Shown here: piece after piece, positions 23,250 through 28,527 of the stretch | Position numbering within the stretch: position 1 is the first letter of the stretch | Layout of the letters: every line of letters begins with the position of its first letter | Assembly (NCBI RefSeq): GCF_002093665.1 | Contig: NZ_MRWE01000004.1 | Location: forward strand, 124,001-188,000 | Origin: Rouxiella badensis | Lineage (GTDB): Bacteria > Pseudomonadota > Gammaproteobacteria > Enterobacterales > Enterobacteriaceae | Length of the DNA: 64,000 nucleotides | Direction of reading: 5' to 3' | Notes under the pieces: generated by a model | Database searches by the model: none | Seen by the model: the letters and a program-made list of their open reading frames with translations, nothing else | Told to the model about the DNA's origin: nothing | Made by a program: the position numbers and the translations under genes

Positions 23250-24368
23250 TTAGTGCTGCCTTTCCTGACGCCACTGCCGCGGACTGAGGCCAAACCAGCG
23301 GCGAAACGCCCGCGAAAAGGCACTGACCTCGGAGTAACCTAACAGCAGTGCCATCTCTGAAATCGGCAGCTGCTGTTGCTGAAGATAGTGCGTTGCCAGC
23401 TCGCAGCGCACCTTGTCCACCAGCAGGGTAAACGTCAGGTTTTGTTCACGCAGCCGGCGTTGCAGCGAGCTGGGTGACATGCCCATCTTGTCGGCTACGT
23501 CGTCGAGCACCGGCTCGCCGAGGGTCAAATTCTGTCTGACCTGCGATCTCGCGCGATCGACCACCGACTGCTGCGTCAGATTGTCGGCGTTCAAACGGCG
23601 GATAGCATCCTGCATCACCAACAGCAACGTTTGATCCTGCTCGGGCATCGATCGCTGAAGATCCCGCTTGGCGATGATCAGCGAGTTATAGGGTTGATCA
23701 AAATAGACTGGCGCGTCGAAGATCTTGCAGTGCTCGTGCCACTGCTCCGGCCTTGGATGCTCGAAATGCACCTCGCGCGGTGCCCAGTTTCTGCCTAAAC
23801 CGTGGCGCAGCAGATTCAGGATCATCCCCAGCGTCAACTCGGCGTCCTGACGTTTACACAGGATGCCGCCGTGGCGAACCTGATAATCAAAGCGATAATA
23901 CTCGCCCTTGTCGACCAAACGGGTCAGCGTATTGTGCTGATGAAACGGAAAGGCGTTCACCACGTTTTGCAACGCGGTTTCGGCCGAAGACGAACAAAGA
24001 CCAATGTAACCAATCAAGCCTAATGACTGTGGTTTGAATTGCCTGCCGTAATGCAAACCGAAGTTATCACAACCCGACTGCCTGGCCGCCTCCTCCAGAA
24101 CCTGACAATAGTTGGTCAGGCCGAGACTCAAGGTGGGACGCTGCAAAAGCTCGGGATCGATATGGCAGATCCCCAGCACGCGATCCACGTCGGCCCCTTT
24201 AGTAATAATAAAATCGCTCAGCCCACTGGCCGCCGCCGCCAATACGCCGCGATTGCTGTTCATCTCAGCCTCTGTGTAGCCTGACAAGGTTGACTGCCGC
24301 AATACGTCAATCTGCATACGCGTTTCCACTGTGGTTAATTTGTCTAGACGAGTTGCTGCAATTTTCAT
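23250..24368 (-). CDS. AraC-family transcriptional regulator (OruR/ArgR-like)
   Basis: The C-terminal double helix-turn-helix of AraC regulators spans about residues 275-370, with MGMSPSSLQRRLREQ and LLLGYSEVSAFSRAFRRWFG. The N-terminal part resembles the Arabinose_bd-type effector domain found in OruR-like regulators. The start is uncertain. ATG codons at 24368, 24317 and 24263 are in frame, and the last has the best ribosome-binding site (AGAGGCTGAG), which would give 337 residues. It lies directly downstream of the kinase gene on the same strand. I infer that it controls the kinase/phospho-lyase/permease genes. Confidence 0.85.
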   Translation of the reverse strand: MKIAATRLDKLTTVETRMQIDVLRQSTLSGYTEAEMNSNRGVLAAAASGLSDFIITKGADVDRVLGICHIDPELLQRPTLSLGLTNYCQVLEEAARQSGCDNFGLHYGRQFKPQSLGLIGYIGLCSSSAETALQNVVNAFPFHQHNTLTRLVDKGEYYRFDYQVRHGGILCKRQDAELTLGMILNLLRHGLGRNWAPREVHFEHPRPEQWHEHCKIFDAPVYFDQPYNSLIIAKRDLQRSMPEQDQTLLLVMQDAIRRLNADNLTQQSVVDRARSQVRQNLTLGEPVLDDVADKMGMSPSSLQRRLREQNLTFTLLVDKVRCELATHYLQQQQLPISEMALLLGYSEVSAFSRAFRRWFGLSPRQWRQERQH

Positions 24369-24469
24369 ACCAGAGAAAGAATTATCAGGAAAAAATCAGG
24401 GGCTTTAAGGTCAGGCACTTAGCCGGTGCGGTGGTTTAAGGGGAGTTTGCTGGCATATCAAGGGAAAGT

Positions 24470-24499
24470 GCACACTGCACGCAAACCGTGCAGTGTGTC
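24470..24499 (-). terminator. Hairpin after the APH-type kinase gene
   Basis: ACACTGCACG (24472-24481) pairs perfectly with CGTGCAGTGT (24487-24496) around CAAAC. The T tract on the minus strand is weak, so it may be a terminator or only an mRNA 3' end stabiliser. It separates the kinase gene from the AraC gene. Confidence 0.6.
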
Positions 24500-24511
24500 G
24501 TTAAATTACGC

Positions 24512-25522
24512 TTAACTCACCGCCAGCGCGCACTGCTCGGTTGCGAGGTAGGCTTGGCAAAGTTTCAAACTGTCGGCGACCCAATTATCGCCCAGACTCA
24601 GCGCCATCTCGGTCGTCGCGTGCGATCCCACCCAGGCCAGCAGCTGAATACGGCGCTGGATAATCATCGTCGGGATCACCGCCAAACAGTCCTCACTGAG
24701 GGCACAGACGCGCTGATACCCCGCCAGCCAGTGCTCCACCCACTCTGACGCACGGGGATGATGTTCGACGAAACTAATCGCCGCCGCCGCGTCGTGCATG
24801 TACCAGCCCATGCCGCAGTCGTCGAAGTCGATCACCCGCGTCTCTCCTTTGTGCAGCAGCAGGTTGGTGAGGCGCAGATCGGCATGGATCAGGCCATAGC
24901 GCTGACTGCTCTTGCCGTATTTTTCCAGAATGCGGCTAACGCGGCGCAGGGTCTCCTCGACGATCGGATGGTCTTTCGGCTGGAGACCCGGTGCATCCTG
25001 CCAGCGTCCCCAGTGGCCTTTTTCGCCGGTCATGGTCTGGTGGTCCCAGACGATACGTTTAAACCCGCTCGGTTTCTGCCAGCGCTGGCTGTGCTGATGC
25101 AGGCGTGCCGTCACTTCGCCGAGCTGAGCAAAGGCGCGCGGATCGACCTCTGTGGTGGGCATCTCCCCTTCAATCCATTTAAACAGCACCACGTGGCGGC
25201 TGGCACCTTCGCCCAGTGACAAAGTCTGCACACGCTCGCCGTCTTGCGTTACCAGCGCTTCTGGCACCTGAATGCCGGTTTCGCGCAGCGCGTCGAGCCA
25301 CGCCAGCTCACTCTCTATCTCGTTACGCTGGTGATAGTCGTCGCGGTGCACGCGCAGCGCCAGACGATTGCCGTCGGCAAGCTTCACGACAAAGGTGGCA
25401 TTTTCTGAACGGCAGATCAGGGCGAGTTCACCCTGTAGCGCATCGGGATAACGGGTTAACGCCTTGGCAGCGAGCTGTTGCAGGCTGGCGTTGTCCAGGG
25501 TATCAGACTGTTTTGCATTCAT
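24512..25522 (-). CDS. APH-family small-molecule kinase, predicted amino-alcohol kinase
   Basis: A 336-residue phosphotransferase of the aminoglycoside/choline kinase fold. The catalytic loop is HADLRLTN, with His213, Asp215 and Asn220; the metal-binding motif IDFDDCG contains Asp232 and Asp234. The family phosphorylates hydroxyls of amino alcohols, homoserine, hydroxylysine and antibiotics. The neighbours set the likely role: the divergent gene is a PLP enzyme of the phospho-lyase type and the next an ethanolamine-type permease. I therefore predict that it makes O-phosphoethanolamine or a related amino-alcohol phosphate. Antibiotic resistance is unlikely from the context. RBS GGAG precedes the ATG at 25522. 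Confidence 0.78.
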   Translation of the reverse strand: MNAKQSDTLDNASLQQLAAKALTRYPDALQGELALICRSENATFVVKLADGNRLALRVHRDDYHQRNEIESELAWLDALRETGIQVPEALVTQDGERVQTLSLGEGASRHVVLFKWIEGEMPTTEVDPRAFAQLGEVTARLHQHSQRWQKPSGFKRIVWDHQTMTGEKGHWGRWQDAPGLQPKDHPIVEETLRRVSRILEKYGKSSQRYGLIHADLRLTNLLLHKGETRVIDFDDCGMGWYMHDAAAAISFVEHHPRASEWVEHWLAGYQRVCALSEDCLAVIPTMIIQRRIQLLAWVGSHATTEMALSLGDNWVADSLKLCQAYLATEQCALAVS

Positions 25523-25793
25523 CAGGGTTCACTCCGGGCAGCTCAAATAGGGGGTTGTGCTATCAGAATGCGAGCGACAACGGTTCTTCGCTTGACCCGG
25601 GACGGCCAATTGTTGACTTCAGCACACCAAATTCGGCGTCGAGCGGTCAACTTGACTCTGGCGTGCAGGACTGAGCGCGCTGCGGTCAAGTTTTGTGAGG
25701 TAACGCGGTGCATTATCGAAACAACTTCACTCGCCGGATGACAGGGGTCAGCCGGAGAAAAATCGAATCGTATCCGTCAGGAGAGAACCTACC
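25523..25793. promoter_or_regulatory. Divergent control region of the kinase and phospho-lyase genes
   Basis: The 271-bp gap must drive both directions. GCGGTCAA occurs twice in the same orientation (25643-25650 and 25682-25689), 39 bp apart, and the first copy lies within the palindrome GTCAA-C-TTGAC. Direct repeats with near four-turn spacing fit an AraC-type activator. The ribosome-binding site AGGAGAG precedes the phospho-lyase ATG. Confidence 0.45.
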
Positions 25794-27107
25794 ATGCTGA
25801 AAACTAATGCCTTTGATGCCGCATCCAGCTCAAACGTTTCACCCGAAGCGCTGGAGATGATCGAACGTCGCCGCCGCCTGCTCGGTCCTGCCTATCAGCT
25901 GTTCTACAAAAATCCGGTGCATCTGGTGCGCGGTGAAGGTGTGTGGGTATTTGACGCGGCGGGCAGACGTTATCTCGACGTTTACAACAACGTACCTTCC
26001 GTCGGCCACTGCCACCCTTACGTACTCGAGGCGCTGATTCGTCAGGCTTCTACTCTGAACACACACACGCGCTACTTACACGATAACGTGCTTAACTTCG
26101 CCGAAAAGCTGGTTTCGACCATGCCATCTGAACTGAGCCAGGTGATGTTTACCTGTACCGGCAGCGAAGCCAATGACCTGGCGCTGCGCATCGCCGAAGA
26201 TTTCACCGGCGGGACCGGCGTGATCGTCACCGAATTTAGCTATCACGGCATGACCAAGGCGATCGCCGGCCTTTCAGCCTCGATGGGTCCTTACGTCAAG
26301 GTGAACGGCGATGCCCGCGTTATCCCTGCGCCGATTCATAACCCAGCCAACCCGGCAGAGGTAGGCAAGAAGTTTGCCGCCGACGTTCGCGCGGCGCTGG
26401 CCGATATGCACCGCCACGGCATCAAACCGGCGGCATTGATGATTGATACCTTCTTCACCAGCGACGGCGGCTTCTTTGACCCGGCCGGTTTCCTGAAAGA
26501 AGCGATCGACGAGATTCACAAGGCAGGCGCGCTGTATATCGCCGATGAAGTGCAGCCTGGCTACGGTCGTTCCGGTGAACACATGTGGGGCTTCCAGCGT
26601 CACGGCGTACTGCCGGACATCGTCAGCCTCGGCAAGCCGATGGGCAACGGACACCCGATGGCCGGCATCACTATCAAACCGCATATCCTCGAGCGCTTCG
26701 GCAGCGAGTCGAGCTATTTCAATACCTTCGGCGGCAACACCGTGTCATCGGCAGTTGGCCTGGCGGTGCTGGAAGTGATTGAACAGGAAGAGCTTATTCC
26801 AAGCGTCGGCCGTGCAGGCAAGGCTATCCTCGACGGCATCAGCGAACTGGCGACCCGTTTCCCGGCCATCGGCAGCGTGCGCGGCGCGGGGCTGTTTGTC
26901 AGCGTTGACTTCACCACGCCGGACGGCAAACCAGACTCAGAAACCGCGCTCGCCGTGGTCAATGGACTGCGTGAGGAGGGCGTACTGATCGGCGCTTCTG
27001 GCCCACACGCCAATATCCTGAAAATCCGCCCGCCGCTGGTGTTCACCGCCGAGCACAGCCTGATCCTGGTCGAAAGCCTGGAGAAAGTGCTGCGCAAAAT
27101 GTACTGA
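25794..27107 (+). CDS. Class-III PLP enzyme, predicted amino-alcohol phosphate phospho-lyase
   Basis: A 437-residue class-III aminotransferase-fold protein. The PLP lysine is Lys281 in LGKPMGNGHP, Asp251 is in IADEVQPGYGR, and the phosphate-cup motif is GSEAND. The segment NTHTRYLHDNV (89-99) and the FNTFGGNTVS region are much like the animal phospho-lyases AGXT2L1 (ethanolamine phosphate) and AGXT2L2 (phosphohydroxylysine), not ordinary transaminases. Such enzymes release ammonia, phosphate and an aldehyde. With a kinase and permease beside it, I predict conversion of O-phosphoethanolamine to acetaldehyde. A true aminotransferase remains possible. Confidence 0.78.
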   Translation: MLKTNAFDAASSSNVSPEALEMIERRRRLLGPAYQLFYKNPVHLVRGEGVWVFDAAGRRYLDVYNNVPSVGHCHPYVLEALIRQASTLNTHTRYLHDNVLNFAEKLVSTMPSELSQVMFTCTGSEANDLALRIAEDFTGGTGVIVTEFSYHGMTKAIAGLSASMGPYVKVNGDARVIPAPIHNPANPAEVGKKFAADVRAALADMHRHGIKPAALMIDTFFTSDGGFFDPAGFLKEAIDEIHKAGALYIADEVQPGYGRSGEHMWGFQRHGVLPDIVSLGKPMGNGHPMAGITIKPHILERFGSESSYFNTFGGNTVSSAVGLAVLEVIEQEELIPSVGRAGKAILDGISELATRFPAIGSVRGAGLFVSVDFTTPDGKPDSETALAVVNGLREEGVLIGASGPHANILKIRPPLVFTAEHSLILVESLEKVLRKMY

Positions 27108-27162
27108 TTTTTTTCCGCCTGATTGGGCGGGCGTGCCGTTCATTTATCTTCAGGAGAGCAAC

Positions 27163-28527
27163 ATGACAACACAGCTTAAACCGACGCTAGGCACCCTGCA
27201 CCTGTGGGCGATAGCCGTTGGACTGGTCATTTCTGGCGAATATTTTGGCTGGAGCTATGGCTGGGGCGTAGCCGGAACGCTCGGCTTTTTGGTGACCACG
27301 CTGTTGGTCGCCACCATGTATACCTGCTTTATCTTTAGCTTTACCGAATTGACTACCGCCATTCCGCACGCCGGCGGTCCGTTCGCCTACAGTCGCCGCG
27401 CCTTTGGCGAGACCGGCGGCCTGGTAGCCGGGATGGCGACGCTGATTGAATTCGTGTTTGCACCACCGGCAATTGCACTGGCGATTGGCGCCTATCTGAA
27501 CGTGCAGTTCCCACACCTCAACCCAAAGGTTGCGGCACTGGGCGCTTACGTGCTGTTCATGGCGCTAAATATTCTGGGCGTCAAGCTCGCGGCTCTGTTT
27601 GAACTGGTGGTTACCGTGCTGGCAGTGCTTGAGCTGCTGGTGTTTATGGGGGTGGTGGCTCCCGGCTTTAGCATCAGCAATTTCGTGCTCAACGGCTGGT
27701 CCGGCGGCGAACACTTCGGACTGCCTGCGGTGTCGGGTATTTTCGCGGCGATCCCGTTTGCCATCTGGTTCTTCCTGGCTATCGAAGGCGCTGCTATGGC
27801 CGCCGAGGAAGCGAAAGATCCGAAACGTACGATCCCGAAAGCTTACGTCAGCGGGATCCTTACTCTGGTTGTGTTAGCGATCGGCGTGATGATCATGGCC
27901 GGTGGCGCAGGTGACTGGAGCAAACTTGCCAACATCAACGATCCTCTGCCTCAGGCGATGAAGATGGTGGTCGGTGAACATTCAAGCTGGATGCACATGC
28001 TGGTATGGATTGGGCTGTTCGGGCTGGTAGCCAGCTTCCACGGCATTATTCTCGGCTATTCGCGCCAGTTCTTTGCGCTGGCTCGTGCAGGCTATCTGCC
28101 GGCCGGACTGGCGACACTGTCGCGCTTTCAGACGCCACATCGCGCCATTATTCTTGGCGGTGTAATTGGTATCGCGGCAATATTTAGCGACGGCGTGGTG
28201 AATTTACAGGGCATGTCGCTGACGGCGGCGATGATAACTATGGCCGTGTTTGGCGCGATCGTGATGTATATCATGAGCATGCTCAGCCTGTTTAAGCTGC
28301 GCAGAACCGCCCCGGATCTGGCCCGCAGCTTCCTCGCACCGGGCTATCCTGTTGTGCCAGCCATTGCGCTTTGTCTGGCGGTGGTATGCCTGATTGCGAT
28401 GGTATGGTTCAATCTGGAGATTGCCGGTATCTTCCTGGTCTTTATGCTGGTCGCCTACCTCTACTTCGGGGCGACCAAGGCACAGCGCAACGCGGCGGCA
28501 CCGGATACGATGCTTTCAGGGGATTAA
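27163..28527 (+). CDS. APC-superfamily permease, ethanolamine permease type
   Basis: A 454-residue transporter with about 12 membrane helices. The N-terminal block LWAIAVGLVISGEYFGW with SYGWGVAGTLGF resembles ethanolamine permeases (EAT family, APC superfamily), and EEAKDPKRTIPKAY is the usual APC loop. I start at MTTQLKP (27163), which has AGGAGAG upstream; an in-frame ATG ten codons earlier has none. It follows the phospho-lyase gene by 55 bases and is probably co-transcribed. No eut microcompartment or ammonia-lyase genes are nearby. Confidence 0.82.
   Translation: MTTQLKPTLGTLHLWAIAVGLVISGEYFGWSYGWGVAGTLGFLVTTLLVATMYTCFIFSFTELTTAIPHAGGPFAYSRRAFGETGGLVAGMATLIEFVFAPPAIALAIGAYLNVQFPHLNPKVAALGAYVLFMALNILGVKLAALFELVVTVLAVLELLVFMGVVAPGFSISNFVLNGWSGGEHFGLPAVSGIFAAIPFAIWFFLAIEGAAMAAEEAKDPKRTIPKAYVSGILTLVVLAIGVMIMAGGAGDWSKLANINDPLPQAMKMVVGEHSSWMHMLVWIGLFGLVASFHGIILGYSRQFFALARAGYLPAGLATLSRFQTPHRAIILGGVIGIAAIFSDGVVNLQGMSLTAAMITMAVFGAIVMYIMSMLSLFKLRRTAPDLARSFLAPGYPVVPAIALCLAVVCLIAMVWFNLEIAGIFLVFMLVAYLYFGATKAQRNAAAPDTMLSGD

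What the first reader, a model, noticed from the sequence alone, without database searches (positions are those of the whole stretch)
23250..28527. Predicted amino-alcohol (ethanolamine) kinase/phospho-lyase catabolic cluster
An APH-type kinase, a PLP enzyme resembling animal AGXT2L1/AGXT2L2 phospho-lyases, an ethanolamine-type APC permease and an AraC-type regulator sit together, inserted between sbcC and mak. The set explains a full pathway: import of ethanolamine or 1-amino-2-propanol, ATP-dependent phosphorylation, then beta-elimination to an aldehyde, ammonia and phosphate. This differs from the cobalamin-dependent Eut pathway. Classical enzymology described an amino-alcohol kinase and an amino-alcohol O-phosphate phospho-lyase in Erwinia; this cluster is a plausible genetic basis. 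The motifs are seen in the sequence; the substrate is inference.
Basis: partly seen in the sequence, partly recalled or inferred. Interest (0 to 1): 0.78.

Follow-up and report, generated by a model that had tools for sequence, protein, structure and literature searches.

The report
Shell-less ethanolamine kinase–phospho-lyase gene cluster
A four-gene cluster in a Rouxiella-like bacterium most likely imports ethanolamine, phosphorylates it and splits it into acetaldehyde, ammonia and phosphate without vitamin B12: known chemistry in a little-described genetic form.

Summary
In detail: an AraC-type regulator, an APH-fold kinase, a class-III PLP enzyme and an ethanolamine-type permease form one unit at 23250-28527, between waaL/sbcC and mak. 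The PLP enzyme groups with two solved phospho-lyases (human ETNPPL, Arthrobacter A1RDF1), apart from 20 transaminases, and has nine residues shared by 57 of 57 clade rows and 0 of 20 transaminases. The kinase's nearest solved relative, by sequence and fold, is the aminopropanol kinase of a mycobacterial microcompartment; shell, SDR and aldehyde-dehydrogenase genes of that kind were not found in the window. The permease is a sister paralog of the one beside EutBC in the same genome. A kinase/phospho-lyase route is well supported; ethanolamine as main substrate is likely, not shown. New points: all 16 of 147 relatives with this kinase also have a lyase-family gene (20 of 147 do); six keep regulator-kinase-permease without the lyase and carry a different, unlinked lyase; the divergent promoter holds four spaced TTGAC sites (16 of 19 spacers). 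In a class-wide sample the pairing is looser (4 of 9). Chemistry and both enzyme families are known, so this is a new variant. The Erwinia link could not be tested.

The parts
23250..24368 (-). AraC/QhpR-like regulator, probably the activator of the cluster
   Evidence: Pfam Arabinose_bd + HTH_18; NF049968 QhpR 315 bits, cut-off 250; linked to the kinase in relatives
24512..25522 (-). APH-fold amino-alcohol kinase (HADLRLTN at residue 213, DFDD at 232)
   Evidence: APH 110 bits; best solved relative 6ef6 by sequence, E 3e-79, and by fold, 43% identity, TM 0.87/0.90; motifs
25523..25793 (.). divergent promoter/operator spacer between kinase and lyase
   Evidence: four-site TTGAC array conserved in 16 of 19 spacers
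25592..25596 (+). operator half-site 1, TTGAC
25613..25617 (+). operator half-site 2, TTGAC, 21 bases from site 1
25652..25656 (+). operator half-site 3, TTGAC, 39 bases from site 2
25685..25689 (-). operator half-site 4, inverted (GTCAA on +), 33 bases from site 3
25710..25717 (+). GCATTATC, possible -10 element of the lyase/permease promoter
   Evidence: found in 14 of 19 spacers; role inferred
25794..27107 (+). PLP-dependent amino-alcohol-phosphate phospho-lyase (PLP lysine K281 in GKPMGNGHP)
   Evidence: phospho-lyase clade in tree; nine signature residues
27163..28527 (+). ethanolamine-type APC permease (listed frame opens at 27133)
   Evidence: TIGR00908 621 bits; 68% identical to the EutBC-linked permease of the same genome; start codon

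Best explanation
A shell-less, cobalamin-independent amino-alcohol catabolic cluster, most likely for ethanolamine. The permease imports the amino alcohol; the APH-fold kinase phosphorylates its hydroxyl with ATP; the PLP enzyme binds the amine as an external aldimine and eliminates phosphate, giving an enamine that hydrolyses to ammonia and an aldehyde (acetaldehyde from ethanolamine). The aldehyde is probably oxidised by one of the general aldehyde dehydrogenases elsewhere in the genome. The AraC/QhpR-like regulator, probably sensing an amine, would act at the four TTGAC sites in the 271-base spacer and switch on both divergent transcripts. Shown by computation: gene families, phospho-lyase clade, kinase kinship, permease paralogy, gene linkage, conserved site array. 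Inferred: substrate, reaction, inducer, operator function, fate of the aldehyde.
For: Lyase with ETNPPL and A1RDF1, SH-aLRT 100, 20 of 20 transaminase rows outside; nine residues in 57 of 57 clade rows and 0 of 20 transaminases. Kinase nearest to the solved 'microcompartment-associated aminopropanol kinase'. Permease over the ethanolamine-permease cut-off and sister to EutBC-linked permeases. In 147 relatives, 16 of 16 kinase genomes have a lyase-family gene, 20 of 147 have one (Fisher 5e-18 by genome, 4e-14 by genus; relatedness not removed). In G031 and G059 both kinase and lyase appear broken. Both lyase types occur next to this kinase.
Against: No enzyme assay. The kinase's best-studied relative is named for (S)-1-amino-2-propanol, not ethanolamine. 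The genome already has EutBC, so ethanolamine use does not need this cluster. Across the class (369 genomes) only 4 of 9 kinase genomes have a lyase at E<=1e-100, and three others carry a different class-III enzyme beside the kinase; the two of these three that I read correctly have 2 of 9 signature residues. No aldehyde dehydrogenase of the two kinds tried is in the window. The seven unlinked lyases examined lack the TTGAC array. In three of the 16 genomes (G009, G031, G059) no regulator or permease match lies in the 18 kb around the kinase.
Confidence: 0.72

Rival explanations
1. The true substrate is 1-amino-2-propanol (or aminoacetone after reduction): the same two steps would give propionaldehyde, as in the mycobacterial aminoacetone microcompartment but without a shell.
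For: Closest solved kinase is the aminopropanol kinase. Other clusters with this kinase family carry an SDR (51-66% identical to the Moraxella one) near it; the SDR of L014 hits 6ci9/6ci8 best (where they are named 3-oxoacyl-ACP reductase; I recall them as the aminopropanol dehydrogenase).
Against: No such SDR or aldehyde dehydrogenase in this window. In the 27 loci listed, those with an eat-type permease (68-96% identical) had no SDR over 30% identity, and the four with an SDR of 52% or more had no permease match at that threshold (E 1e-15). The permease is a close ethanolamine-permease paralog.
Confidence: 0.2
2. The pair acts on another hydroxy-amine, such as 5-hydroxylysine or a larger amino alcohol, like the human HYKK/PHYKPL pair.
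For: Hydroxylysine kinase and a 5-phosphohydroxylysine phospho-lyase are known (title of Veiga-da-Cunha 2012 seen in the reference list of PMC8154272; gene names recalled).
Against: The ethanolamine-type permease points to a small amine, and the closest solved kinase acts on a small amino alcohol. No hydroxylysine enzyme was in the trees, so this is not excluded by phylogeny.
Confidence: 0.05
3. The kinase serves biosynthesis (phosphoethanolamine or aminopropanol phosphate for lipids or cobamides) and the lyase is only an overflow valve.
For: Six genomes keep regulator-kinase-permease without a lyase beside it.
Against: All six carry a lyase elsewhere in the genome; in G021, Chimaeribacter and Acinetobacter the same lyase type is linked to the kinase.
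Confidence: 0.05
4. Ordinary amine cluster: the PLP enzyme is an omega-transaminase and the kinase an unrelated APH enzyme.
For: Pfam and NCBIfam call it an aminotransferase family member.
Against: Tree and signature residues.
Confidence: 0.02

Closest known systems
Aminoacetone/1-amino-2-propanol microcompartment (RMM/Aaum, also called Aut) of Mycobacterium and Rhodococcus
   Same: APH-family kinase of the same family (39.9% identical in R. jostii RHA1) and a class-III enzyme in the phospho-lyase clade (L174); [quoted passage not shown]
   Different: No shell proteins, SDR or aldehyde dehydrogenase found here; AraC-type instead of GntR-type regulator; eat-type permease
Ethanolamine-phosphate phospho-lyase (human ETNPPL/AGXT2L1, PDB 6tor) and Arthrobacter A1RDF1 (PDB 5g4i; organism and A1RDF1 name recalled)
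   Same: Same clade, PLP lysine and nine signature residues
   Different: Here in a cluster with kinase, permease and regulator; activity not measured
Short cobalamin-dependent operon permease-eutB-eutC
   Same: Sister permease, 68% identical; same genome
   Different: No EutBC in the window cluster; different chemistry
Amino-alcohol kinase and amino-alcohol-phosphate phospho-lyase activities of Erwinia and Pseudomonas (1970s enzymology; recalled, no paper seen)
   Same: The two reactions predicted
   Different: No named Erwinia or Pectobacterium genome was examined; the one named Erwiniaceae locus (Pantoea coffeiphila, L031) has the other kinase family

Membership tests
Class-III phospho-lyases (ETNPPL/A1RDF1 type) | Groups with ETNPPL and A1RDF1 rather than with transaminases | tested here: met
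   SH-aLRT 100 for the 57-row clade, 20 of 20 transaminase rows outside
Class-III phospho-lyases (ETNPPL/A1RDF1 type) | PLP lysine and clade-specific residues | tested here: met
   K281 plus G31, N66, V67, R93, W265, P282, F309, N310, K410: 9 of 9 in the window, 5g4i and 6tor; 0 of 9 in each of the 20 transaminases
Class-III phospho-lyases (ETNPPL/A1RDF1 type) | Release of phosphate and ammonia from an amino-alcohol phosphate | not testable with these tools
   needs assay
Aminopropanol-kinase family (6ef6) | Nearest solved relative by sequence and fold; HxDxxxxN and DFDD motifs | tested here: met
   E 3e-79; Foldseek rank 1, 43% identity; motifs. In the kinase tree 6ef6 lies inside family A but not next to the window
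Aminopropanol-kinase family (6ef6) | ATP-dependent phosphorylation of a small amino alcohol | not testable with these tools
   needs assay
RMM/Aaum microcompartment | BMC shell proteins at the locus | tested here: not met
   tblastn with three R. jostii shell proteins: nothing better than E 0.56 in 64 kb; the queries find themselves in L174
RMM/Aaum microcompartment | Aminopropanol dehydrogenase (SDR) and aldehyde dehydrogenase at the locus | tested here: not met
   one SDR and two aldehyde dehydrogenases as queries: nothing better than E 0.38 in the window
Ethanolamine permease (TIGR00908) | Score over the curated equivalog cut-off | tested here: met
   621 bits against 381.75
Cobalamin-dependent Eut pathway | EutB/EutC beside the permease | tested here: not met
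   the only EutB match of the genome is at G000:C26, another contig
QhpR regulators | Score over the NCBIfam cut-off | tested here: met
   315 bits against 250, and also the regulators of L014, L173, L176
QhpR regulators | Control of a quinohemoprotein amine dehydrogenase operon (recalled) | not tested
   no search for such genes was made; the one paper search for QhpR listed nothing relevant in the 8 of 19 shown

The most novel reading that the evidence does not exclude
Enterobacterales hold a modular, B12-independent phosphoethanolamine route in which the kinase-permease-regulator block is stable while the lyase is swapped: an in-block lyase (Rouxiella; also Salinicola), a second lyase type beside the block (G021, a Chimaeribacter plasmid; an Acinetobacter plasmid has it beside kinase and regulator), or that second type unlinked, mostly with a DeoR-type gene nearby. 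In two genomes this second lyase sits next to a 2-aminoethylphosphonate-like ABC importer, one of them (G027) without the kinase, which suggests direct uptake of phosphoethanolamine, bypassing the kinase.
Probability: 0.35. Interest if true: 0.62.

Novelty: new variant of a known kind. Interest (0 to 1): 0.5.

Why it matters
Ethanolamine from membrane lipids is a nitrogen and carbon source, and its bacterial use is usually equated with the B12-dependent Eut pathway (general knowledge). If this cluster works as proposed, some Enterobacterales and relatives have a second, B12-free route: 7 of the 16 kinase genomes in the set of 147 show no EutB, though in two of these seven (G031, G059) kinase and lyase appear broken. 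It gives directly testable genes for activities described decades ago without genes (recalled), and it suggests that 'aspartate aminotransferase family' proteins in such clusters and in the Rhodococcus microcompartment are phospho-lyases: PMC6620236 (passages) proposed an aminotransferase, while the R. jostii protein falls in the phospho-lyase clade here.

Tried and rejected
Transaminase reading: rejected by tree and signature residues. Member of a microcompartment: rejected, no shell genes found. Co-regulation of the unlinked lyases by the same operator: not supported; none of the 7 examined (L162, L163, L164, L166-L169) has TTGAC sites at these spacings upstream, and G009's kinase L119 has none either. 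The Acinetobacter plasmid, where kinase and lyase have separate promoters, does show an inverted pair 32 bases apart before each. Genome-wide search for further operators: the direct 21-base pair is uninformative (33 matches in G000 against 27 for the reversed control); the inverted pattern CTTGAC-N28-GTCAAG occurs in 4 of 8 genomes, with one site beyond the clusters, in G002, not followed up; the reversed control also had one site in each of two genomes. A strict pairing rule for all bacteria: rejected by the class sample. Ten paper searches were made; searches returned nothing, and the listings of the others showed no paper on this cluster. Most subscription papers are not held, so this is no proof of novelty. 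Of papers I saw passages only (PMC6620236, PMC4207490, PMC8154272, PMC8007038, PMC13149127, PMC6787980, PMC11346464).

Row choices: the lyase tree (77 rows) used 34 of the 80 loci, 20 further loci, three PDB segments, the window and 8 aminotransferases of its genome; in it the R. jostii lyase is labelled 'no kinase' only because its kinase lies 4.4 kb away, over my 4-kb rule. The permease tree used the 11 of 29 EutB loci L187-L215 whose stretch held a permease match of 300 residues or more, plus L123 and L089, which are the same gene. Row L228_x was a wrong reading frame and is not used.
Full report
What is there. The regulator and kinase run leftwards and the lyase and permease rightwards from a 271-base spacer (25523-25793). 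The permease more probably starts at 27163. The unit lies between a Wzy_C gene next to sbcC and mak. The window's genome is close to Rouxiella silvae (95% lyase identity).

The PLP enzyme. Its best solved relatives are the phospho-lyase 5g4i (E 2e-108) and ethanolamine-phosphate phospho-lyase 6tor (E 2e-99); the next, GABA transaminase 1sf2, is at 4e-46. In a tree of 77 rows the window enzyme, both references and 54 other bacterial rows form one clade (SH-aLRT 100) without any of the 20 transaminase rows (quick method, some long branches among the transaminases). Nine residues are shared by 57 of 57 clade rows and by 0 of 20 transaminases. Inside the clade the window enzyme sits in a group of 11 rows, all within 4 kb of a kinase of the same family (SH-aLRT 99).

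The kinase. Best solved match is 6ef6 (E 3e-79); a predicted model (mean pLDDT 87) also matches it first (TM 0.87/0.90, 43% identity), with the title 'Structure of the microcompartment-associated aminopropanol kinase'. The paper on an (S)-1-amino-2-propanol kinase of Mycobacterium smegmatis was not held; I saw only its title in reference lists. Two kinase families accompany these lyases: family A (this one) and family B (20% identical or undetectable). Of the 74 loci L015-L088, all with a detected kinase had family B; family A was found in L009-L014. The two are separate clades of 27 and 6 rows (only 6 of the B kinases were put in).

The permease. It passes the ethanolamine-permease model. The genome's own permease beside eutB and eutC is 68% identical. 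In a 29-row tree the 14 kinase-linked and 13 EutB-linked permeases are two sister groups (SH-aLRT 82; two of the 13 are the same gene). This favours ethanolamine or something very like it. Other family-A clusters carry an SDR and no close relative of this permease (L013, L014, L175, L176; L225, L228, L229, L230, L232), which fits an aminoacetone/aminopropanol variant. Salinicola aestuarinus (L011) has a more distant permease, 39% identical.

Linkage and co-occurrence. Among 147 relatives, 16 have the kinase (E<=1e-20) and 20 a lyase-family gene (E<=1e-60); all 16 are among the 20 (Fisher 5e-18 by genome, 4e-14 by genus; shared ancestry inflates this). Of the 16, six have the four-gene form (G000, G002-G005, G146), one has the second lyase type beside the block (G021), six have the block and an unlinked lyase, and three (G009, G031, G059) show no regulator or permease match near the kinase. 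The four with a lyase but no such kinase are G001, G027, G116 and G128. G001, G116 and G128 have a family-B kinase adjacent to or in the same frame as the lyase; G027 has a family-B pair plus a lone second-type lyase. In G031 and G059 both genes appear broken (stops, or pieces in different frames). EutB is found in 37 of 147 genomes and in 9 of the 16 (Fisher two-sided 0.005), so the cluster does not simply replace EutBC.

Lyase exchange. G025, G069, G019, G062, G079 and G080 have regulator-kinase-permease with no lyase between; G025 and G069 have it at the same sbcC-mak site. Each has a lyase of another clade (44-47% identical to the window's) elsewhere; G019 and G062 also have a family-B pair. 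A DeoR-type gene lies close to five of these six lyases and to the one of G009; only that of L162 was scanned, the others I judged by look-alike sequence, and none was seen near L163 (G079). The same second lyase type is linked to the kinase in G021 and on a Chimaeribacter arupi and an Acinetobacter ursingii plasmid. The four-gene form also occurs in Salinicola rhizosphaerae (L012) and in another Enterobacterales family (L118, whose permease is split in two frames). I read this as an ancestral in-block lyase replaced by a non-orthologous one, but gain in the Rouxiella line is not excluded: the kinase tree leaves the deep branching open. In G027 and G079 the second-type lyase lies beside ABC genes that score below, but within about 50-110 bits of, the cut-offs for the phnS2/phnT2/phnU2 aminoethylphosphonate importer models (all three proteins scanned in G027, the binding protein only in G079). 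The binding protein's solved relatives are iron- and pyridoxal-phosphate-binding proteins, so uptake of phosphoethanolamine is only a lead.

Promoter. TTGAC at three places and one inverted copy, spaced 21, 38-40 and 33 bases, occur in 16 of 19 kinase-side spacers (two of the 19 are identical; the misses are L172, which lacks the first site, and L011 and L014, which have other genes in between). The full array appeared in 0 of 20000 first-order random copies of the window spacer, and either pair alone in 11. The array is present with and without the lyase in the block. That the AraC-type regulator binds it is inference.

Wider class. In 369 genomes drawn from the class, 9 have the kinase (E<=1e-60) and 15 the lyase (E<=1e-100; at most four candidates a genome were scored), 4 both: G000, G290, G458 (adjacent) and G359 (on different contigs). 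Of the five others, three (G386, G407, G501) carry a different class-III enzyme beside the kinase; the two of these that I read correctly have 2 of 9 signature residues. So the pairing is strong in and around Enterobacterales and looser beyond.

Verdict. A kinase plus phospho-lyase pathway is well supported; ethanolamine is the likeliest substrate (about 0.7), aminopropanol next (0.2). Both enzyme families and the chemistry are known, so this is a new variant: shell-less, eat-permease-linked, with an AraC/QhpR-like regulator, in a genome that also has EutBC. Fifteen Aldedh-family matches elsewhere in the genome could supply an enzyme for the aldehyde.

Noticed in passing
L221:8158-14631 (G027) and L163:8117-13519 (G079): A second-type phospho-lyase next to an aminoethylphosphonate-like ABC importer (phnS2/T2/U2 models, below cut-off); possible uptake of phosphoethanolamine itself.
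   Followed up: partly
L123:7135-10939 (G000:C26): The window's genome also has a short permease-eutB-eutC operon, so two ethanolamine routes may coexist.
   Followed up: yes
L165, L161, L170, L222: SDR, family-B kinase and phospho-lyase in a row, with a regulator gene next to them: a different kinase/lyase pathway of unknown substrate; family-B pairs are common in the alpha- and beta-proteobacterial loci.
   Followed up: partly
L176:1-10043 (Moraxella osloensis plasmid): Family-A kinase, phospho-lyase, permease, SDR, two aldehyde dehydrogenases and a QhpR-like regulator together without annotated shell genes: a plasmid-borne shell-less aminoacetone/aminopropanol-type cluster.
   Followed up: partly
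L227:8495-9793 and L229:6558-7865: A divergent class-III PLP enzyme beside the same kinase family (with SDR and aldehyde dehydrogenase in L229), lacking 7 of 9 phospho-lyase signature residues; activity unclear.
   Followed up: no
window:31186-34540: AroM-like gene, a DUF1177-like gene and an oligopeptide-transporter-like gene in a row (names recalled from the sequence, not scanned).
   Followed up: no
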